64,000 nucleotides of DNA, taken from contig JANQKS010000115.1 in NCBI GenBank assembly GCA_028281005.1, positions 62,001 through 126,000 on the forward strand. The letters are read 5' to 3'. The notes under the pieces are model-generated. The model saw only the letters and a list, made by a program, of their open reading frames with translations, did no database searches and was not told the DNA's origin. The first letter of the stretch is position 1, and each line of letters starts with the position of its first letter. Positions 49,254 to 58,589 of this stretch are shown here, one piece after another. The position numbers and the translations under genes are program-made. This DNA is from Pseudomonadales bacterium. Its GTDB lineage: Bacteria; Pseudomonadota; Gammaproteobacteria; Pseudomonadales; Azotimanducaceae.

Positions 49254-51106
49254 TCGTGACACTGGCCGGCCATGTGGATCACGGCAAAACTTCATTGGTG
49301 CGGGCGCTCACCGGAGTCGATACCGACCGTTTGGAACAAGAAAAGCAACGCGGCCTCACCATTGACCTCGGGTTTGCATACGTTAAGGACGATAACCCGT
49401 CCGGTACATTAGGTTTTGTGGATGTGCCAGGCCATCATAAGTTCATCCACAACATGGTGGCCGGAGTGGCCAGCCACCAGTACGCCCTGCTGGTCATTGC
49501 GGCCGACGACGGACCCATGCCCCAAAGCCGCGAGCACCTCGATATCCTGCGTTTGATCGGAGTTGAAAGAGGTGTCATTGCGCTGACCAAAATTGATCGC
49601 GTCGATGCAGACCGCCTAAAACAGTGTGAGCTAGAAATAACCAACCTGGTGGCGGGTTCGTTTCTAGAGAACGCCGCGATTGTGCCCACCAGTGTCGAAC
49701 AGCCAGAATCTATTCAGCGCCTGCTAGAGCATTTGCACGCCCAAACCACAGCCGATCAAGCGCAGGCAGCCGACGGCGCGTTCCGTTTGGCAGTCGACCG
49801 CACCTTCTTAGTTAAAGGCGCCGGTCTTGTGGTCACCGGCACGGTCCACTGTGGGAGTGTCTCCGAAGACGACACCCTCTACCACTTCCCCAGTGGCAAG
49901 GCGATACGAGTCCGCGGCGTGCGCGCCCAAGACCAGAAGGTCACCGCCGCGCACACCGGTGACCGCTGCGCGCTAAACCTGACCGGCATCGATCTTGATG
50001 AGGTGACGCGCGGCGATTGGGTCACCGCAGAACCTTCCCCAGCCTATCGCGAGGTAACGGGGGAGCTAACAGTGCTAGAGAACTTTCCGCGGCCCATCAA
50101 ACACTGGACCCCCGTGCATGTATATCATGCCACCAGCCACACCACCGGACGCATTGCGCTGCTTAGCGACCAACGCCTTGGCCCTGGAGAAGCAGGGTTA
50201 GTCGACCTTTTGTGTGATACCCCCTTGCCGGTGCACCACGGTGATCAACTCGTCATTCGAGATCAAAGCCTCGATGTCACCCTCGGCGGATTGCGCGTAG
50301 TTCATGCCAGCAAGGACCAAACCCAACGCCGGCGCAATGAGCAGCGTCGTGATCTATTAGAACAACTGGACAGCGACAATCACGCCGAAACGTTACGCAA
50401 ACTGTTACAACAAGGATCTGTCGACCCCGAGCACTTCCGCCAAGTGCGGCACCTCAGCCCCGACGACATGGCAAATCTTGTCGAAACGGCAGATGCACTG
50501 AAGGTTCAGGGATTGCTAGTCAATCGAGCTTATTGGGGCAACTTAGCCAAGCAGGCTTTCACTCAGGTTAAACAGCACCAAACCGAGAACCCCAGCTCCC
50601 CGGGCCTGCGAGAAAACCAGATCACCGGCATCCCGGATACGCTCAAACAAACCCTACTCAACGCCCTGGTGCAGGCCAAACAACTGAAAAACACCGCCGG
50701 TTTATTTCAGCTCCCGGAACACACGGCAGAGCTACCCGAAACCTTGGCCAAATCATGGCGCCGCCTGCAACCGGCGCTGGATCAGCCGCAAGCACCTTCA
50801 ACTGGCGATCTCGCTAAACAGTGGTCAACGCCCCAACAACAAATTGAAGCGGACCTAAAAGAGCTCAGTAAGCGCGGCTACGTCACACACATTGCAAACC
50901 ACCGTTTCTACTTGCCGACCCAACTTGAAAGTCTGTCGAAGCAGGTACTAGCGCTTGCCGAAGACAAACCTTTCAACGTTCGCAAATTCAGAGACCGCAC
51001 AGGGATCGGACGCAACGTGGCCATTGAGATCCTTGAATACTTCGACAGGCGCGGATTTACACGCAGACAAGGCAACGAACGGATCGTGTTGAAACAGACT
51101 ATTTAA
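49250..51106 (+). CDS. selB: SelB, selenocysteine-specific elongation factor
   Basis: SelB is the EF-Tu-like GTPase that brings Sec-tRNA(Sec) to UGA codons with a SECIS element. G1 is AGHVDHGKTS (6-15), G2 GLTIDLGFAYV, G3 DVPGHHKFIHNM, G4 TKID. Domains II/III follow, then four winged helices in the C-terminal ~240 residues that read the SECIS hairpin (last one KFRDRTGIGRNVAIEILEYFDRRGFTRR). 618 residues, normal. GTG start inside the selA stop. Its stop codon TAA overlaps the stop codon of the convergent HNH gene in TTAA. Confidence 0.97.
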   Translation: MIVTLAGHVDHGKTSLVRALTGVDTDRLEQEKQRGLTIDLGFAYVKDDNPSGTLGFVDVPGHHKFIHNMVAGVASHQYALLVIAADDGPMPQSREHLDILRLIGVERGVIALTKIDRVDADRLKQCELEITNLVAGSFLENAAIVPTSVEQPESIQRLLEHLHAQTTADQAQAADGAFRLAVDRTFLVKGAGLVVTGTVHCGSVSEDDTLYHFPSGKAIRVRGVRAQDQKVTAAHTGDRCALNLTGIDLDEVTRGDWVTAEPSPAYREVTGELTVLENFPRPIKHWTPVHVYHATSHTTGRIALLSDQRLGPGEAGLVDLLCDTPLPVHHGDQLVIRDQSLDVTLGGLRVVHASKDQTQRRRNEQRRDLLEQLDSDNHAETLRKLLQQGSVDPEHFRQVRHLSPDDMANLVETADALKVQGLLVNRAYWGNLAKQAFTQVKQHQTENPSSPGLRENQITGIPDTLKQTLLNALVQAKQLKNTAGLFQLPEHTAELPETLAKSWRRLQPALDQPQAPSTGDLAKQWSTPQQQIEADLKELSKRGYVTHIANHRFYLPTQLESLSKQVLALAEDKPFNVRKFRDRTGIGRNVAIEILEYFDRRGFTRRQGNERIVLKQTI

Positions 51107-52368
51107 GGGTCTTCATGCTGCATCAACACAAAGTTGATGTAGTGATAGTCAGGTGGTTTATGTCCAAGCTCGGGTGTGAGGGTGTAAGGGTCGATGGCTT
51201 GGGCATCAAACGTTTCGTATGGAAAAAACGTTTCCGCGGAAACGTTTTCTAGCTCGTTCATAGCGGATGCAGACGACGGGATTGGCTCTGGAACAACAGG
51301 TCCAGTTAACTGATCCGCCACCGCTGGCAAAACATTACCTTCAGGGTCACGAAACACAAAATCAACTGAGCCGTCATCTACAAGCTCCCGATGCACCCGA
51401 TATCCTTGCTCATGAATGAGCCGGTGATGAAAGCGACACAACAGCACCAAGTTGTTCAGCTCCGTTTTACCGCCTTTAGACCAATGGTGAACGTGATGGG
51501 CATCCACAAACCGATTGTGGTCACACCCGGGAAAACGACAACCGCCATCCCGTTTGTGTAAGGCGCGTCTGAGTGGACCGGACACCAGCCGCGTTTTAGA
51601 TGCGGGTAACGGTGTTCCCTGCTCATCACATCGGTGTGTCACCACGCTGGCATCACACAGCAGACGTTCTTTCAAAGGTTCCGCCAAGGGTGAGCTATCC
51701 AGATCTATGTGGATTTGGAAGCGGTCGGCGGATGATACGCGGCCGTTAGCCTGCTTCGCCGCCAATGCCTGCTCCACCACCCCCATCAAACACTCAGCAT
51801 TGCGTTGATGACCGCTGACCTCGGCAGGCGGCTCTACCGCCTCTAACGCTTGGAGTAACAGCATCCCGTGTTCCGCGGACAAACGCCCTTTGAATACCAG
51901 TCCACCTGCGCTGTCTCGGGAGTAAGACAAGGTAGAAGCATCTTCCTGCACCTGTTTAACCGTCAAAGTCTGCCGATACTGACGCATCACGGTTTCGGTC
52001 TGCGCCGCGTTGGCATGTAAAGCAATGTTTAACAGACGCTGCTCATTGTCTACCGTGGCCACTCGGGTCATGGCACGTACTTTGGAGTAACTGATGCGGC
52101 CTTCGGCAAATGCAGCCGGGATGACATCCAACTCGTGTAACGCCCGGCCCACCCGCACTTTCTCTCGCGCCGCTGCCGGTCCAATGCCACACCGGTAGGT
52201 CAACCACTGGGCTGTGGTTTTGCAGCCTTCGCGGGCATAACCGCGGTTTTCATCAAACGCGTGGATGAGTTTTAGCAGCGCATAAGTGGCAAGATTGATC
52301 TGTGCGTACAGTGAGCAGATTTGTTCACCCAGGGTGGTGTCGAACGGCACCAAGTGATTGTTTTTCAT
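51103..52368 (-). CDS. DUF222/HNH endonuclease
   Basis: A 421-residue protein: DUF222 helical domain (about 1-270) followed by an HNH nuclease motif with zinc cysteines (CRFPGCDHNRFVDAHHVHHW, then NLVLLCRFHHRLIHE) and a ~90-residue acidic tail. The HNH residues are all present, so it is probably active on DNA. DUF222-HNH proteins are abundant, mostly uncharacterised and often scattered in many copies. It sits between selB and selC, which are usually adjacent or near. Its promoter overlaps a near-perfect LexA box, so DNA damage induction is likely. Confidence 0.9.
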   Translation of the reverse strand: MKNNHLVPFDTTLGEQICSLYAQINLATYALLKLIHAFDENRGYAREGCKTTAQWLTYRCGIGPAAAREKVRVGRALHELDVIPAAFAEGRISYSKVRAMTRVATVDNEQRLLNIALHANAAQTETVMRQYRQTLTVKQVQEDASTLSYSRDSAGGLVFKGRLSAEHGMLLLQALEAVEPPAEVSGHQRNAECLMGVVEQALAAKQANGRVSSADRFQIHIDLDSSPLAEPLKERLLCDASVVTHRCDEQGTPLPASKTRLVSGPLRRALHKRDGGCRFPGCDHNRFVDAHHVHHWSKGGKTELNNLVLLCRFHHRLIHEQGYRVHRELVDDGSVDFVFRDPEGNVLPAVADQLTGPVVPEPIPSSASAMNELENVSAETFFPYETFDAQAIDPYTLTPELGHKPPDYHYINFVLMQHEDP

Positions 52369-52397
52369 GAGGTTACTTTCTGGAAAAGCGAAGCCTT

Positions 52398-52426
52398 ATT
52401 ATAACAAAATACTGGATATATATACA
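52398..52426 (-). promoter_or_regulatory. Promoter of the HNH gene
   Basis: On the minus strand a perfect -10 TATAAT (52398-52403) lies 30 bases before the ATG, with a weak -35 TGTATA (52421-52426) after a 17-base spacer. The -35 lies inside the LexA-like palindrome, so a bound repressor would block RNA polymerase. Confidence 0.7.
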
Positions 52427-52429
52427 GTA
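52410..52429. promoter_or_regulatory. LexA (SOS) box upstream of HNH gene
   Basis: The plus strand reads TACTGGATAT then ATATACAGTA. The SOS consensus is TACTGT-(AT)4-ACAGTA; only one base differs, in one half site, and it covers the -35 region of the HNH gene. selC starts 75 bases away on the other side. Confidence 0.75.
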
Positions 52430-52504
52430 ATATCCCGTACTTCCGAAAGGCTGCATAGGCTGTAGCAAAAGAGTCGTTGCCGTTTTTTTGTTACCATCTC
52501 TCGC

Positions 52505-52597
52505 GGAAGAGCATCGTCTCCGGTGGGGCGCGCGGCCTTCAAAGCCGTTGAGGTGCGAATACGTGCCTGGTGGGTTCGACTCCTACCTCTTCCGCCA
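52505..52597 (+). tRNA. selC: tRNA-Sec (anticodon TCA)
   Basis: A 93-base tRNA with the features of bacterial tRNA-Sec: anticodon loop CTTCAAA (UCA), a long D stem (CGTCTC/GGGGCG), a long variable arm (AGGTGC/GTGCCT), T-loop TTCGACT, discriminator G and encoded CCA. The acceptor stem is GGAAGAG/CTCTTCC (7 pairs) with a 5-pair T stem (GTGGG/CCTAC). E. coli has 8+5; here the base after the seventh pair (C) has no partner, so the stack is 12 pairs. The 3' end is the left boundary of a genomic island. Confidence 0.96.
52584..52597 (+). repeat. Left direct repeat (att site) of the selC island
   Basis: TACCTCTTCCGCCA, the end of the selC T-arm, acceptor strand and CCA. It keeps selC intact. Confidence 0.8.
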
Positions 52598-52858
52598 TAA
52601 AGCTAGCTAAATATGCCGTGCGCACAATTGTCAACTAACACGGTTTACTAGTTAGGAATTATTGAGGTTACAACGCTAACCATCTGTATCTATTACCAAT
52701 TACTACTACACGGCCAATCAGAGAGTTTCGAAAAATAGCGAGAGCACGCGGTGCGCGTTACCCGCCATCGCTTAACCAAGGAAGGACCCGCAGAAGTTAA
52801 CGTGCGACCGTTCTCATGGAGACAAATCCATTGACTGAACTATCAGCGATGAGCCCTG

Positions 52859-53467
52859 TTATGTCTGCTGAGGAACAGCACCAGCCATGTTGTTTTCAAG
52901 GTTTCGCAACCTGTCTAAAAACGGCGAAAAGCCGCGCCCACATTTCCCAGCGACTACCTCAACGTCTAACTCCCGTGCTACGTCAGCGTAGAAATCCGCT
53001 AGTGCCACGTCGAGAGACTCTGTTATCGCACGCGCGACTTCTTTTCCTTTATTTACACGGTCCAACTCCTTCACTTCGTTCACTGTGACAGAAGCTACCT
53101 TTCTGACCGCATTGATATCAGCAAGCATCCACGAGTCGAACGTTCTGATTGGAACACCGAGCGCTCGAGGAAATAGGTTTCCCTCCCAGATTTGAGCATC
53201 TTCTATTTCGCTTAGACGATCGGGATAGTTGTCTTGGTCAACGAGCAAGACTAACGCGTCATAACCACGCTTGTCGGCTTCAATAATCCATCTTATAGCC
53301 CGTTTCATCATCCCGGCTCCCCGACCGTGATGCGTGTGTATCTCATTGTTTGCAACGCGATCCGAGTCAAACTCGGTACAGGATGGACAAACTTGCTTTA
53401 CGATATTTTCCATCGCTCCAAAACGCTCATGCGGGCCTTCGCCGACGATTAGGCACTTTCCGGTCAT
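52859..53467 (-). CDS. TOPRIM-domain protein (DUF4276-like), partner of the ATPase
   Basis: A 202-residue protein that reads as a TOPRIM nuclease domain: the first acidic motif is LIVGEGPHER (Glu10 and Glu14), and the DxD motif is Asp77-Gln-Asp79 in LVLLVDQDN after a predicted strand. Later conserved-looking pieces are FDSWMLAD and AGKCGRGFSPFL. It resembles DUF4276/DUF4435-type proteins that accompany ABC-like ATPases in antiphage systems; I infer a metal-dependent nuclease. Its ATG overlaps the ATPase stop by four bases (ATGA), so the two are coupled. It lies inside the selC island and has no other neighbour there. Confidence 0.78.
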   Translation of the reverse strand: MTGKCLIVGEGPHERFGAMENIVKQVCPSCTEFDSDRVANNEIHTHHGRGAGMMKRAIRWIIEADKRGYDALVLLVDQDNYPDRLSEIEDAQIWEGNLFPRALGVPIRTFDSWMLADINAVRKVASVTVNEVKELDRVNKGKEVARAITESLDVALADFYADVARELDVEVVAGKCGRGFSPFLDRLRNLENNMAGAVPQQT

Positions 53468-54639
53468 ATCTTTGAATCGGCGATCGCCCTATCTCCTTCT
53501 GCTGTCCAAATCTCTCCGAGTGTGAATATGTCTTTTTGGCTTGTCACAAGTTCGCTGTTAGCCAAATTCGTAACGGTGACTTCTCCTTCCTTGTTTTTGG
53601 TGCAGACATTTACATCTTCCGGTTTGAATAGATCAACCACGTAGGGAGAGTGAGTCGTCAACAAGACCTGTGTACCGGCGTTTTCCTCGACCAAGTCTTT
53701 AAAGATGCTCAGTATGTCCTTTAGCCGTTTAGGGTGGATTCCGTTTTCAGGCTCTTCGATGAGCAACATCGACGGCGGATTTGGAAGTTTCAGGAGAGTC
53801 AGGTATGCGAGCACGATTATTAAGCCATCTGAAACCTGCGATGCCGGTACAGGTTTGTTATAGCTCTTGGTTATGAACGCGATCCCTTTGCCGTCACCTC
53901 TCTGCAGCAAGGGCACGGGCATAGAAGGATCGAAATTCGCTCGGTACCCTTGCTGAGGTAAAACTTGAATTCTTTCAATCTGAGGAAAGATCTTTCTGAA
54001 TCGATCTTCTAGTTCCGCGAACAAATGTCTGTCGTATCCGAGCAAGTAGTCCAGACAGCTCGCCAGTCCAAATCCAGATGCATCTATGGTTGGGTCTTCT
54101 CCCCTCGACAAATCGGCTGCTGTGGGCAGCGCAAGAAACGAAGGATTCCATCGTGCTAGCGATACTCCTCGCAAAGTTCTGCGAATCGTAGAGAGCCCTT
54201 CTTGCTGGTTTTTTGGTAGGTCGGCTGATTGGGACAGATTGATTGCTGTGACTCGTTTGTTCTTGCTCTGCGGAAGGTTAAAGCTTCGGGCTGGGCTTAC
54301 CGAGGTATCCGCGTAGGACTCTTCAATAACCCGCACGTCTTTCCCTTGTTTGAAGTCAAGAGCCAGAGAGTAGTTTAACGCCGTGCGCTCTTCGGATATG
54401 TCTGCCTCGAAGGTGACAAACTTACTTCGGTCCTGTCGCCACACAAGCTCTTGGTCAACCCAGTTTCCTGTAAAGCAGTTTTGTAGATCTAGCTCGGCGC
54501 TAGAACAAAGGGCTTCGACAGATTGCAATACACTAGTCTTCCCAGAGTCGTTCGGACCGATTAGAACGCTAATCGGAGAAAACGGAATCGAGACGTTTCG
54601 AAGCGCCTTGAAGTGTCTGATTGTGAGGTGCCTTATCAT
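53464..54639 (-). CDS. ABC/OLD-type AAA ATPase of putative defence module
   Basis: A 391-residue SMC/ABC-like ATPase: Walker A GPNDSGKTS (28-36) right after the N-terminal strand pair IRHLTIRHFKALRN, a signature-like VSDGL (269-273), Walker B MLLIEEPENG (291-300) and the H-loop TTHSPY (328-333). OLD nucleases have this ATPase fused to a TOPRIM domain; here the protein stops after the ATPase and TOPRIM is a separate overlapping gene, the arrangement of PARIS (AriA/AriB). The ATG has AAGG at a good distance. The 230 residues between Walker A and the signature, with no motif I recognise, may be the sensor region. Confidence 0.85.
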   Translation of the reverse strand: MIRHLTIRHFKALRNVSIPFSPISVLIGPNDSGKTSVLQSVEALCSSAELDLQNCFTGNWVDQELVWRQDRSKFVTFEADISEERTALNYSLALDFKQGKDVRVIEESYADTSVSPARSFNLPQSKNKRVTAINLSQSADLPKNQQEGLSTIRRTLRGVSLARWNPSFLALPTAADLSRGEDPTIDASGFGLASCLDYLLGYDRHLFAELEDRFRKIFPQIERIQVLPQQGYRANFDPSMPVPLLQRGDGKGIAFITKSYNKPVPASQVSDGLIIVLAYLTLLKLPNPPSMLLIEEPENGIHPKRLKDILSIFKDLVEENAGTQVLLTTHSPYVVDLFKPEDVNVCTKNKEGEVTVTNLANSELVTSQKDIFTLGEIWTAEGDRAIADSKI

Positions 54640-55153
54640 TGCACGACCTTATGCGCGTTAAACTAGACAATTATTGGGTGAAGTATCCCACGATCTTACA
54701 TTCCATAGTTGTGAGTCGCTCGTAGTTTCGGGTCTCAACTTGTCCTTCGTGAACATACGCCGAGACTACGGAATTCGCCTTCAGAATCAGTTTGTCGATT
54801 CAATTCTTTCGGCCCAGTCTGTAAGTCCTTTGGGTGACACCTCTAGTTGGAGCAACCTTGAGTAGATGTTCTGAGTGACAGTTTTAGTGGATACCACGCC
54901 AGAATCGTCACAAGACCAAAATAGAATTCCGTTACAAACCAGGTTCACTCAGCGCGGCTACCTTCTTCGCAGAAAGTACAGTGCGCGCAGTCTTGGAAGT
55001 CGCAATTTCTCCAACCCACCAATCAACCAGCCAACAAGTCTGGGATAGTGCTGGAAATCTCTAGACTTAGCTAGACGCTAACAGCATTGTTTTTGTTATA
55101 AAAATCGGTGCGAGTAGACTTACTCAGACCTGCATAAACCCCGGATTTACGGA
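54640..55153. other. Non-coding right part of the island
   Basis: About 510 bases, low GC (one line counted at 42%), with no gene that I can support. A 63-codon plus-strand frame at 54674-54865 has no ribosome site or family features. It includes the promoter region of the ATPase gene, in which I could not fix a -35/-10 pair. It might contain an RNA or the remains of a lost gene. Confidence 0.5.
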
Positions 55154-55167
55154 TACCTCTTCCGCCA
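55154..55167 (+). repeat. Right direct repeat (att site) of the selC island
   Basis: TACCTCTTCCGCCA again, identical to the selC 3' end but without the rest of a tRNA around it. It marks the right border, 22 bases before the serine-hydrolase stop. Confidence 0.8.
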
Positions 55168-55189
55168 GACTCAACCCCGAGGGCTGAGA

Positions 55190-56674
55190 TCATCTTCCGC
55201 GAATCACAAGCGTTAACAAAACGACGGCAAGCAACAAGGCTAGTACCATCGACACAACTGCTGTGACAGTCAGATCAGGAAAGAATGCATAGCCGGTCGC
55301 GAAGTCGACCTTAGTCACTTCCTGGAACCCAACCAATACAGCATAAGCACCCGCCACCAGCCCCAATACCGCCCCAAGATTCAGAACGCGTATCTTAAGA
55401 GAAATGGGATCTCCGGGTTTCCGCAGTTGCCGTGCAGCCTTGAAAAGCAATAACAAAAGCCCCAACGGGGCTGTCGCGGCCCACCAGATCGCGGTGCTTG
55501 CGCCAATCGACGCCGCTGCAGGCACAGGCTCCCTGCCCAAAGCGGCGTTGGTCACAGCCCTCGGTAGATCGCCGTGCGCCAGGCCTGACATATTGGTTAA
55601 CACCACCGCCACCTCGCTCCTCGCAGGGACTATTGTGGCGAGGGTAAAGAAACCAGGTGTAAAACCCGAATGCTCGTAGACTAGATCGTCGGCGGAGCTA
55701 TCTGCATACCAACCGTAGGCATACCCCCAATGCCCACCGATGGGTTTAACAGTGAATAGCCTCTCCACACCTTCAGGCACAATACGCGGGTCGCGAGTGC
55801 GTACTGCCTCCACATAGCGAGCCATATCCTCGATACTGGCCCAAACACCGCCGGCGCCGATCATGCGCCTATCAGGCTGTGCCTCCTGCGCTGGCTGCCA
55901 TGCTCGCGGCAACCCAAACCAAAGGCGGTAACCTGTCGCCACCGCAGTCGCGCCCGAAGGCGGCTTACTCACAAAACTGTTCCTCATGCCAAGCGGACTA
56001 AAGATGCGCGTTTGCAATACTTGCTCGAAGCTCTGCTCGTCCAGAACCTCAATCAGGTGGGACAGCAGCGCGTAGTTGGCGTTTGAGTATTGAAAAGACG
56101 TCCCCGGTTCAGCGAACAACTGAACCCCAGCTAGTTCTGCAACCACTGCCGCTGGCCCTGACAAATTGGAGTCGACGGCAGCGGAACGGTTGCCGTCCAA
56201 TGTCGTCAGTCCGCTGTGGTGCGTAACCAGGTGATCAATAATGATGCGATCCGACTGAGATTTAGAAGCAGTGCGGAAAGTTGGAACATGGCGTACCAAC
56301 GGATTATCCAAGCCAAGCAGTCCCTCAGCTGCCATTTGCAGAATGATAAGCGCCACAAAAGACTTGGTGATCGATCCTATTTGAAATGGCGTTTCTGCGG
56401 TAACGGGCGCTCCGGTCGGCCCAGCTATGCCAAAACCTCTTACAAGAACTGTCTGCCCGTTGCGTAATACCGCCACGGCCATGCCCGGCGCCCCAGCCTC
56501 TTCGCGCATCTTTGATGCAGCGGCGTCAAACCATGCTGAGTCAAATTTCTGGTCGGCTTCCCATTGTTCTGCCATTACTTGCTGTCCCAAGAGGACGAGC
56601 AACAGCACACCAATCATTCCTGTCGTCTTAATAAATCCACCAACCAACGGTTTATTGGATTGGATGTTAACCAT
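55190..56674 (-). CDS. Membrane-anchored serine hydrolase (beta-lactamase/AmpC-like fold)
   Basis: A class C beta-lactamase-type serine hydrolase of 494 residues. A hydrophobic signal or anchor lies in the first ~35 residues, then the active-site motif SITK (SxxK), the YSN motif (FQYSNANYALL) and HSGFTPGF as the third element. The last ~110 residues hold three hydrophobic helices, so the catalytic domain is probably periplasmic and tethered. Relatives include D-aminopeptidases, esterases and PBP4-like proteins; the substrate is open. Start uncertain: ATG at 56674, GTG at 56710 or ATG at 56617; none has a convincing ribosome site. Its stop lies 22 bases from the island border. Confidence 0.85.
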   Translation of the reverse strand: MVNIQSNKPLVGGFIKTTGMIGVLLLVLLGQQVMAEQWEADQKFDSAWFDAAASKMREEAGAPGMAVAVLRNGQTVLVRGFGIAGPTGAPVTAETPFQIGSITKSFVALIILQMAAEGLLGLDNPLVRHVPTFRTASKSQSDRIIIDHLVTHHSGLTTLDGNRSAAVDSNLSGPAAVVAELAGVQLFAEPGTSFQYSNANYALLSHLIEVLDEQSFEQVLQTRIFSPLGMRNSFVSKPPSGATAVATGYRLWFGLPRAWQPAQEAQPDRRMIGAGGVWASIEDMARYVEAVRTRDPRIVPEGVERLFTVKPIGGHWGYAYGWYADSSADDLVYEHSGFTPGFFTLATIVPARSEVAVVLTNMSGLAHGDLPRAVTNAALGREPVPAAASIGASTAIWWAATAPLGLLLLLFKAARQLRKPGDPISLKIRVLNLGAVLGLVAGAYAVLVGFQEVTKVDFATGYAFFPDLTVTAVVSMVLALLLAVVLLTLVIRGR

Positions 56675-56775
56675 TGTTGCGAGGACGACACCAGTCCGCG
56701 CCACCCCCACGACACATTTGAACCCATAGCAGATTCAACGTTACCTACTGCTTGAGCATCCATCAGGAAACAACC

Positions 56776-57081
56776 ATGAGAACCCTCTTATCAATCCTCT
56801 TGCTGACTACCGCGGCAGGCGCAATCGCCGATCCAGCTGCTCAATATGAATATCTTACAAGTCAAGCACAGTCGCCTTCTCACCAGGCTTCAGATTACAC
56901 ACGAGGCAACAGCTCTTATGCGAATCAGAGCCCGAGTAAGTACTACGAAGGAACAGTAGCGACAGGCGGTGTGTTAGTTGCGGAAGACCCAACTCAGCCG
57001 CGCGACACAGTTCAAGCAACCAGCAACGAACGAGACAGAGCGTTCCAGACCTTGTCGAATATCATGAAATCCGAACACTGA
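56776..57081 (+). CDS. Small secreted protein of unknown function
   Basis: A 101-residue protein. The ATG at 56776 follows AGGA, and residues 1-18 (MRTLLSILLLTTAAGAIA) form a clear signal peptide with an Ala-x-Ala-type cleavage site. The mature part is rich in Ser, Gln, Tyr, Thr and Asn without cysteines, so no disulfides or lipobox. I recognise no domain. It is divergent from the serine hydrolase and converges on the next gene. Confidence 0.7.
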   Translation: MRTLLSILLLTTAAGAIADPAAQYEYLTSQAQSPSHQASDYTRGNSSYANQSPSKYYEGTVATGGVLVAEDPTQPRDTVQATSNERDRAFQTLSNIMKSEH

Positions 57082-57101
57082 TTCGGGGCACCTGAGTCGG
57101 A

Positions 57102-57503
57102 TTACTGCTCAGCCTCCCGCTGATGCCGAATCCACTCCTTGTCCACGTTAAGTTTGCCGGCAATCTTGTCCTCGGGCGCCACGACCCGCCAAAACGGCGT
57201 AATTTCGCGCAGCGGCGTGCCGCCCTCTAATTCCTCAAGCGCCGCTTGCGCTGCAATCCGTACAAATATTGCAGTGGAGACGGGGCACGTGGCGTCGCAT
57301 TTGTTACGTCGAGCCAGCTCATTCCTGAGTTGATGCATGGTCTTGGTTTTGCCACTGGGGATTTTGCGGATGTAGGTATCCATCATTTGCGGCGTGCCGA
57401 CGAGCATTAATTGCCCTGCCTTGATCCCCGCGAAGTCGTTTTCCAAAACAACTTTCTTTTTCTCTTTTTTCTGCTTTAACCTTGCTACTGCGGATTTGGC
57501 CAT
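57102..57503 (-). CDS. Small basic conserved protein, possibly MGMT/Atl-like
   Basis: A 133-residue protein with a Lys-rich start (KQKKEKKK). The core has CDATCPVSTAIFVRIAAQAALEE and ITPFWRVVAPEDKIAGKL. The WRVV pattern recalls the DNA-binding end of O6-alkylguanine transferases and Atl1-like proteins (PWxRVI), but no PCHR-type active site is present; this is a loose resemblance only. ATG at 57503 chosen; five more codons are open upstream. Function unknown. Confidence 0.65.
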   Translation of the reverse strand: MAKSAVARLKQKKEKKKVVLENDFAGIKAGQLMLVGTPQMMDTYIRKIPSGKTKTMHQLRNELARRNKCDATCPVSTAIFVRIAAQAALEELEGGTPLREITPFWRVVAPEDKIAGKLNVDKEWIRHQREAEQ

Positions 57504-57620
57504 GTTTAACACTCTCACTCCTCGCTAGCCAACTTAGCACGGCTAGCTTGAGACGAAAATAATCCGCCTTTTTCGCCAAATAAAACAATAAGTTACTTCA
57601 TTTCTGCGTTAAGGAACCCC

Positions 57621-58469
57621 ATGCCTAATTGGCTTAAACCCAACAACAATGCGGTCATCACCGGTGGTGCAAGCGGCATCGGCCTCGCGGCCGCGGAGCG
57701 TTTTCTACAAGCCGGTATGAACGTGCTCATTGCAGACGTAAATGCGGACACACTCGGCGATGCTGTGACAACCCTGGCACCCGTCGCGAACGATGGCGCG
57801 CTGCATTCTAAACTCTGTGACGTGGCGGATTTTGCCCAGCTACAAGCACTGCAGTCGACCGCAGCTGACAAGCTGGGCAACGTACACTGCCTGATGAACA
57901 ATGCCGGTACCGGCTTTCCACCCTCCCCACCATGGGAGGGCTTGGAGAATTGGAAGAAGCAGCTGGACATCAATCTGTGGGGCATCATCCACGGTTGCCA
58001 AGCTTTCGTACCGGCCATGTTGGCCGCTGGTGAACCGGGGGCGATCATCAACACTGGTTCCAAACAAGGTATCACCAACCCGCCCGGTAACTATGCCTAC
58101 AATCTCTCCAAAGCAGGGGTCAAAGCTTATACGGAGAGTTTGGCGCATGCGCTGCGCCAAGAGCAGGAGAAGGAGGCTCGGCTAACGGCGCACCTACTGG
58201 TGCCCGGGTTTACGTATACCGGCATGATTGCGCGCTTTGTACCCGAGCAGCCTCCGGGCGCATGGTCACCTCAACAGGTGGTCGATTTTCTCATTGGCGC
58301 ACTTGATCAAGGCGATTTCTACATCCTCTGCCCCGACAATGAAACGCCGCGCGAACTCGATGAACAGCGCATCCAATGGAATACGGACGATTTGATCAAG
58401 AACCGTTCAGCGTTATCGCGTTGGGATCCAGAGTTTGAAGCGGCGTATCAAGCGTTTATCGATGGCTGA
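57621..58469 (+). CDS. Short-chain dehydrogenase/reductase (SDR)
   Basis: A 282-residue classical SDR: cofactor loop ITGGASGIGLAAAE, NNAG motif at about 92, catalytic Ser in NTGSKQG and the YxxxK pair in YAYNLSKAG. Asp at the end of strand two (IADVNAD) suggests NAD rather than NADP. The C-terminal ~50 residues (ELDEQRIQWNTDDL...) are family-specific; substrate unknown. It stands alone, 40 bases or more from neighbours, on the plus strand upstream of metX. Confidence 0.88.
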   Translation: MPNWLKPNNNAVITGGASGIGLAAAERFLQAGMNVLIADVNADTLGDAVTTLAPVANDGALHSKLCDVADFAQLQALQSTAADKLGNVHCLMNNAGTGFPPSPPWEGLENWKKQLDINLWGIIHGCQAFVPAMLAAGEPGAIINTGSKQGITNPPGNYAYNLSKAGVKAYTESLAHALRQEQEKEARLTAHLLVPGFTYTGMIARFVPEQPPGAWSPQQVVDFLIGALDQGDFYILCPDNETPRELDEQRIQWNTDDLIKNRSALSRWDPEFEAAYQAFIDG

Positions 58470-58589
58470 ATATGACGGTGCAGCCATGAGCAATGCCGCC
58501 ATTGTTGGTGCAAAATCGCACTAGCACCCGCGCCGCGAATCTCTTAAGGTTCTCCGCCCCACACCGAACGAGAATCGCCGAGGCCTTTT

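What the first reader, a model, noticed from the sequence alone, without database searches (positions are those of the whole stretch)
52584..55167. A 2.57 kb integrase-less genomic island sits in the 3' end of selC
Seen: the last 14 bases of selC recur perfectly at 55154-55167, and the DNA between has lower GC than both flanks (hand counts about 42-52% against 57-62%). Known: tRNA 3' ends and selC in particular are integration sites. Inferred: the island was inserted by a tyrosine recombinase that it does not encode. Very small islands carrying only a defence cargo and att sites depend on helper recombinases and are poorly catalogued.
Basis: partly seen in the sequence, partly recalled or inferred. 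Interest (0 to 1): 0.85.

Follow-up and report, generated by a model that had tools for sequence, protein, structure and literature searches.

The report
Integrase-less two-gene island in selC
A 2.6-kb stretch carrying only a putative two-gene phage-defence operon sits in the 3' end of a tRNA gene with the ends of an integrase-driven mobile element but no integrase, and related bacteria carry other small, integrase-less segments at the same site.

Summary
selC ends with TACCTCTTCCGCCA at 52584-52597 and the same 14 bases recur at 55154-55167. The DNA between is the lowest in G+C of its size in the window and encodes an ATPase/TOPRIM operon, no recombinase. New: (1) the right repeat is preceded by CGGA, giving CGGA-TACCTCT-TCCG, inverted half-sites around 7 bp. 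The same junction type lies beside tyrosine integrase genes in five relatives (in four with selC on the same contig) and occurs in a phage contig. (2) Two arm-like repeats lie upstream, placed as at some other such ends. (3) In 11 genomes of the family with selC-anchored core copies, 10 of 17 segments lack a detected integrase, including all 8 of at most 6 kb (one is only 101 bp). Only three of the ten, in two genomes, have the CGGA/GGGA junction; the others have a selC-like one. Cargo varies. This fits cis-mobilizable elements (CIMEs), known from ICEs and Dehalococcoides ssrA islands, so the kind is known; the site, tiny size and defence-type cargo are new here. Supply of the integrase in trans versus its loss is unresolved, no same-species empty site was available, and defence is inferred from resemblance to HEC-01 and OLD-type pairs.

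The parts
52504..52597 (+). selC (tRNA-Sec), intact; its 3' end is the attachment site
   Evidence: ARAGORN 52504-52596; Rfam RF01852 71.7 bits at 52505-52593; base 52597 added from the sequence
52584..52597 (+). left core copy (attL): overlap TACCTCT plus right half-site TCCGCCA
   Evidence: exact 14-mer; preceded by GACTCC, as in most of the selC genes
52598..52858 (.). left non-coding stretch of the island
   Evidence: Rfam finds only selC in 52300-55400; no repeats of 11 nt or more in 52580-52870
52859..53467 (-). TOPRIM-type protein, 202 aa (weak DUF4276, weak HEC-01B)
   Evidence: Pfam E=2.7e-4, below cut-off; PADLOC HEC-01B E=3.5e-5; E10, D77, D79 invariant in 13 aligned sequences; model pLDDT 86.8, first PDB match an OLD-protein C-terminal region, E=0.0098, TM 0.42
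53464..54639 (-). OLD/RecF-like ABC ATPase, 391 aa (AAA_21; HEC-01A), first gene of the operon
   Evidence: Pfam AAA_21 5.2e-32; PADLOC HEC-01A 5.1e-45; GPNDSGKTS, EEPENGIHP and HSP motifs invariant in 12 aligned sequences
54640..55153 (.). right non-coding stretch, where the integrase gene lies in relatives; no integrase remnant detected
   Evidence: tblastn with the G025 and G024 integrases gives one match, E=2.9, and that lies beyond the right core
55062..55076 (+). putative arm-type repeat 1, TAGACTTAGCTAGAC
   Evidence: the repeat finder; 12 of 15 identical to copy 2, reached by 4 of 300 shuffles
55084..55098 (+). AT-rich motif GCATTGTTTTTGTTA, resembling one upstream of related integrases (weak)
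   Evidence: PWM score 11.47, reached by 4% of 300 shuffles
55115..55129 (+). putative arm-type repeat 2, TAGACTTACTCAGAC
55150..55167 (+). right junction (attR): CGGA half-site, 7-bp overlap TACCTCT, TCCGCCA
   Evidence: same 18-mer with at most 1 mismatch in 11 of 146 genomes, this one included; beside an integrase gene in some relatives

Best explanation
This is a cis-mobilizable-type mini-island. A P4-type tyrosine integrase (label recalled; PHROG integrase phrog_1 in G025) recombined a circular DNA carrying an attP (left half-site CGGA, 7-bp overlap TACCTCT, right half-site TCCGCCA, plus arm repeats) with the 3' end of selC. The tRNA was rebuilt at the left end and the hybrid junction left at the right. 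The integrase is not in the island; most likely it was supplied in trans by a selC-specific prophage, satellite or island no longer present. The cargo is one operon, an OLD-like ABC ATPase coupled by a 4-nt overlap to a TOPRIM protein, which I infer acts as phage sensor plus nuclease. Supported by comparison: junction type, arm-like repeats, absence of integrase, conserved operon. Inferred: helper in trans, present mobility, nuclease and defence activity.
For: Repeat and G+C. The CGGA junction occurs in 11 of 146 genomes with at most 1 mismatch, the reversed-pattern control once. Of the 11, one is this genome; three (G097, G103, G030) have a mismatch in the core and lie in or over ORFs, so look like chance; of the other seven, four have an integrase there (G025, G036, G051, G023), two do not (G112, G056) and one cannot be judged (G004, contig begins 270 bp away). 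G469 adds one with integrase, G468 two ends without. Arm-like 15-mer pairs reach 12 of 15 at 6 of 12 such ends, this one included, against 8 of 300 random window pieces. Survey: 11 genomes, 17 selC-anchored segments, 10 without detected integrase; 8 of 8 segments up to 6 kb lack it, one of them 101 bp. A phage contig (terminase, portal, capsid) carries the same attP. The gene pair is adjacent in 13 of the 80 loci kept, overlapping by 1-4 nt in 10.
Against: No helper of selC specificity was found in this genome: its two P4-type integrases (C124, C16), 42-44% identical to those of G023 and G025, lie elsewhere, one beside tRNA-Ser. The phage contig shows no integrase by my P4-type profile. Only 3 of the 10 integrase-less segments (window, both of G468) have the CGGA/GGGA junction; the other 7 have a selC-like left half, so they speak for the site, not for this integrase type. 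The window's arm repeats are modestly beyond chance and the offset range was chosen after seeing them; 6 of 12 ends fall short. No same-species empty site. Integrase loss after insertion would look the same.
Confidence: 0.6

Rival explanations
1. Decay remnant: a larger integrase-bearing selC island or prophage inserted normally and later lost its integrase and most of its body by internal deletion, leaving the ends and the defence operon.
For: Integrase-bearing islands of 9-24 kb with the same junction type exist at selC in G025, G469 and G051. Integrase-less segments also sit in tandem with integrase-bearing ones (G024, G569). CIMEs are explained by decay in PMC5704250 (passages).
Against: No integrase match inside the island (two query integrases only); the end keeps core and arm-like repeats; the short segments lack an integrase in 8 of 8 cases and carry different cargo, which needs many parallel deletions that spare the ends.
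Confidence: 0.32
2. The right-hand 14-mer is a chance or rearrangement copy of the selC tail, and the gene pair arrived another way.
For: The core is only 14 bp, and three of the 11 junction-like hits in relatives look like chance.
Against: Exact copy at the G+C boundary, same strand; CGGA outside the core matches integrase-adjacent junctions; arm-like repeats at a matching offset.
Confidence: 0.04
3. A phage satellite in the strict sense, which uses a helper phage both to integrate and to be packaged.
For: A phage contig carries the same attP; the G056 end lies beside an internal virion protein gene and has arm repeats sharing TATGAGA and near-equal spacing with that phage.
Against: The island encodes nothing recognisable but the two genes: no replication, capsid or packaging gene seen.
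Confidence: 0.04

Closest known systems
Cis-mobilizable elements (CIMEs) of ICE/IME families (PMC5704250; passages read)
   Same: keep attL and attR, have no integration or transfer genes
   Different: only 2.57 kb, a single defence-type operon, and no second core copy or integrase-bearing element in tandem here
Dehalococcoides ssrA genomic islands without integration modules (PMC3146451; passages read)
   Same: direct repeats of an RNA gene's 3' end delimit tandem islands; the authors count 15 islands without an integration module and say they might be cis-mobilizable
   Different: tmRNA gene and CcrB-like serine recombinase there; selC and tyrosine integrases here; different cargo
Integrase-bearing selC islands of the same family (G025, G051, G469)
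   Same: selC target and CGGA/CGGG-TACCTCT-TCCG junction
   Different: 9-24 kb, integrase gene next to attR
HEC-01 (PADLOC) and PARIS / class 4 OLD pairs (PMC10568477 passages; HECs named in PMC12988326 passages)
   Same: ABC ATPase plus separate TOPRIM protein (PARIS per PMC10568477; HEC-01 by profile match)
   Different: the partner matches HEC-01B only weakly and no AriB model; closest full-length homologues found are in Planctomycetota, Binatia and Hydrogenedentota by record title

Membership tests
CIME | flanked by attL and attR of one specificity | tested here: met
   exact 14-bp cores and CGGA-type junction
CIME | no integration or conjugation genes | tested here: met
   two recognisable genes, neither a recombinase nor a transfer gene
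CIME | origin by decay of an ICE or IME | tested here: inconclusive
   no remnant found in the island; integrase-bearing islands at the site in relatives
CIME | att sites still recombine; moves when an element inserts in tandem | not testable with these tools
   needs excision or mating assays; tandem core copies are seen in relatives
Integrase-bearing selC island (IME, satellite or prophage) | own integrase within the att-bounded unit | tested here: not met
HEC-01 (PADLOC) | ATPase matches HEC-01A | tested here: met
   E=5.1e-45, residues 2-380
HEC-01 (PADLOC) | partner matches HEC-01B | tested here: inconclusive
   best E=3.5e-5, residues 39-143
PARIS | partner is AriB-like | tested here: not met
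   six PADLOC families up to E=1, all HEC-01B; the ATPase does match AriA, 6.4e-31
OLD-type TOPRIM nuclease | TOPRIM Glu and DxD conserved (motif recalled) | tested here: met
   E10, D77, D79 invariant in 13 sequences
OLD-type TOPRIM nuclease | TOPRIM fold | tested here: inconclusive
   first PDB hit is an OLD C-terminal region, but E=0.0098, TM 0.42, no hit at E 0.001 or better
Anti-phage defence system | protects cells from phage | not testable with these tools
   bench assay needed

The most novel reading that the evidence does not exclude
In this bacterial family selC works as an open cassette dock. Small units that carry only cargo and an attP-like end (1.6-5.5 kb) are inserted, stacked and exchanged by tyrosine integrases of passing phages and islands, a tRNA-anchored analogue of gene-cassette capture, with defence operons among the cargo.
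Probability: 0.25. Interest if true: 0.72.

Novelty: new member of a known kind. Interest (0 to 1): 0.5.

Why it matters
Methods that find genomic islands from their integrase would miss units like this one. If such minimal units move on borrowed integrases, defence operons can spread with almost no mobile baggage. The short integrase-less segments at selC in this family (8 of 8 up to 6 kb) and a phage contig with a matching attP make that testable at one defined site.

Tried and rejected
Integrase remnant: tblastn with the G025 and G024 integrases gave one match, E=2.9, beyond the right core. The island as DNA in plasmids: no match. The ATPase in phage records: 3 hits, at most 32% identity; in plasmids: 33 records, all under 60%, 28.5% at the top of the list; in viral contigs: one distant hit. 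The TOPRIM gene in 390 genomes of the order: only this genome. Rfam, 52300-55400: only selC.

Empty site: no relative examined shares the right flank at selC. The beta-lactamase-family gene beyond attR is matched over 1.3 kb in G009 and 1.0 kb in G018; G018's copy is 3.7 Mb from its selC and G009 has no selC match over the cut-off. A metX-like gene lies downstream of selC in 7 of 43 other genomes examined (many on short contigs), 0.1-11.8 kb away; in G048 it starts at +104, close to an empty site, though a core copy lies at about +76 there. The window has 3.4 kb of other genes between attR and metX.

The first arm impression (8-mer repeats) was dropped: such repeats are expected by chance in 250 bp (own estimate). 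It was replaced by the 15-mer test, whose offset range was set after looking; two ends not of selC type (C124, C16) were left out of it. The AT-rich motif test is weak and circular for the ends it was built from. The one PDB sequence hit of the TOPRIM profile, a designed TIM barrel at 5.1e-4, was judged spurious. Among the papers listed, none held DUF4276 or the MADS terms in a defence sense.

Rows dropped: the 17 segments come from genomes with two or more exact cores on one contig and strand, the first in selC. Left out: G036 (gap, mismatch), G048 (selC itself differs), G007 (array without tRNA), G080 (different core), genomes with copies on separate contigs. Absence of an integrase rests on a profile from four integrases and PF00589. 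For G468, G565, G569 and G542 all PF00589 matches are listed; for this genome, G024 and G025 one each is not. PF00589 was not run as such on single segments. Much cargo in relatives was named from the translation by eye; Pfam was run on 10 of those proteins.

Full report
WHAT WAS CHECKED. selC lies at 52504-52596 (Rfam tRNA-Sec). Its last 14 bases, TACCTCTTCCGCCA, are repeated exactly at 55154-55167 on the same strand. Allowing two mismatches there are 4 matches in the window against 0.32 expected, and 0 of 100 shuffles reach 4. The DNA between (52598-55153) has 48.2% G+C; 0 of 615 sliding windows of the same length are as low. The 3-kb flanks are 54.8% and 54.4%, not 57-62% as hand-counted.

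CONTENT. Two genes on the minus strand fill most of the unit: a 391-aa ABC ATPase (AAA_21 5.2e-32; HEC-01A 5.1e-45), then, with a 4-nt overlap, a 202-aa protein with weak DUF4276 and HEC-01B matches. A scan of the genome collection kept the best 80 of at least 577 relatives of the ATPase. In 13 of the 80 the next gene is clearly homologous to the second protein (three more match weakly). By record title and recalled taxonomy they are 11 Planctomycetota, one Binatia and one Hydrogenedentota. In 10 of the 13 the genes overlap by 1-4 nt; in two a 7-nt overlap depends on the start chosen; in one the ATPase is a fragment; one TOPRIM frame (L127) is broken. E10, D77 and D79 are invariant in 13 aligned sequences, the TOPRIM pattern as I recall it. 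The predicted model (pLDDT 86.8) has an OLD-protein C-terminal region as first PDB match, weak (E=0.0098). No other genome among 390 of the order has a match to this TOPRIM gene, so the cargo is probably foreign to the group. I infer a sensor ATPase plus TOPRIM nuclease, like PARIS and OLD systems (PMC10568477, passages); this is not shown.

JUNCTION. The window reads TTACGGA-TACCTCT-TCCGCCA at the right end. In G025, G036, G051, G023 and G469 the four bases before the core are CGGA or CGGG and a tyrosine integrase gene starts about 140-195 bp away (in G036 only the 5' part was seen, next to an assembly gap). selC is on the same contig in all but G023. G036 and G023 each have one mismatch in the core. 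The best copies read GGCGGA-TACCTCT-TCCGCC: inverted half-sites around 7 bp, a usual layout of tyrosine-recombinase cores (recalled). selC has GACTCC on the left, so the 14-bp identity is overlap plus right half-site. The 18-mer CGGATACCTCTTCCGCCA with at most one mismatch occurs in 11 of 146 genomes; the reversed control once. Three of the 11 (G097, G103, G030) look like chance: a mismatch inside the core, in or over ORFs of 511, 981 and 199 aa. Besides this genome, two (G112, G056) have a perfect core and no integrase on record: none of G112's three PF00589 matches is on that contig, nor any of the 12 listed of G056's 14. G004 cannot be judged.

ARMS. A pair of similar 15-mers lies at -106 and -53 from the end of the core in the window (12 of 15 identical; 4 of 300 shuffles). 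Of 12 ends tested, 6 reach 12 of 15 (window, G036, G469, G468 second end, G056, phage L269), against 8 of 300 random pieces of the window; six do not (G025 11, G051 11, G112 11, G004 10, G023 9, G468 first end 8). The range was chosen after inspection, so the window's own value is suggestive only.

OTHER CARGO AT THE SITE. The exact core was sought in 206 genomes of the family; 108 have it. Eleven have two or more copies on one contig and strand starting in selC, giving 17 segments. Seven carry an integrase: G025 first, G024 first, G469, G569 first, G566, G466, G051. In ten none was detected: the window; G468, 1.57 and 5.46 kb; G024 second, 3.46 kb; G565, 14.6, 4.0 and 5.2 kb; G569 second, 5.3 kb; G542, 19.7 kb; and a 101-bp piece in G025, too short to hold one. 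All 8 of at most 6 kb lack one. Against my reading: only three of the ten (window and both of G468) have the CGGA or GGGA junction; the other seven have CTCC or CGCC before the core, like selC, and so belong to another integrase type. Pfam-supported cargo in short segments: SAM methyltransferases (G468), an Mrr-type nuclease and DUF6119 (G565), a RES domain (G569), sulfotransferases (G024); of the 10 proteins given, two had no match and one only a weak MarR match. At four of the 11 loci (window, G468, G565, G542) no integrase was found in any segment.

POSSIBLE HELPERS. Of this genome's 12 PF00589 matches 11 are listed, none in the island. Two are of the same type as the selC-island integrases, 42-45% identical to those of G023 and G025; one sits by tRNA-Ser, neither by selC. 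One IMG/VR contig of 14.5 kb with terminase, portal and capsid genes carries TTTGGCGGATACCTCTTCCGCCA with two 29-bp repeats; no integrase was found in it by the four-sequence profile. A phage carrying this site therefore exists.

READING. The most economical account is an att-flanked unit inserted by a selC-specific tyrosine integrase that it does not carry, a CIME in the terms of PMC5704250 (passages). The nearest precedent is the Dehalococcoides ssrA islands, 15 of which lack the integration module and which the authors say might be cis-mobilizable (PMC3146451, passages). Whether the integrase acted in trans or was lost later cannot be decided from one genome. I favour trans supply at 0.6, because no remnant was found, the end is kept, and short integrase-less units recur with different cargo; decay stands at 0.32.

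LIMITS. No same-species empty site: the one genome-contig scan went to the ATPase and no metagenome scan was allowed. Junction 'types' are my label. Literature searches cover open-licence PMC papers only; in the listings I saw no report of this island or of small integrase-less units at selC. Four papers were seen as passages, the rest as listings.

Noticed in passing
L269:4226-4347: IMG/VR phage contig with terminase, portal and capsid genes carrying a selC-type attP with two 29-bp arm-like repeats; no integrase found in its 14.5 kb with a four-sequence profile.
   Followed up: partly
L240:4897-5351: Four exact copies of the core, 132-176 bp apart, in G007; no tRNA in the 8-kb stretch. Looks like an array of empty att units.
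   Followed up: no
L109 (G112:C10:14744-14761, minus strand): Orphan CGGATACC-type end with about five iterated AAGCTTTA-like 13-bp repeats beside it (by eye); no tRNA found in the 19.5-kb stretch.
   Followed up: no
L111 (G056:C304:3086-3103, minus strand): CGGATACC-type end next to an internal virion protein gene (phrog_308), with arm repeats sharing TATGAGA and near-equal spacing with phage contig L269.
   Followed up: partly
window 55168-58589: Between attR and the metX-like gene lie a beta-lactamase-family gene, two small ORFs and an SDR gene. No match to the beta-lactamase or 138-aa ORF near selC in 43 other genomes, only weak SDR matches (31-35%) 12-13 kb away in two. Possibly an older insertion.
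   Followed up: partly
window 51103-52368: A DUF222/HNH gene lies between a selB-like gene (named by eye) and selC; possibly mobile itself.
   Followed up: no
L082 (G080): The selC tail recurs about 870 bp downstream of selC, an even smaller candidate segment in another family of the order.
   Followed up: no
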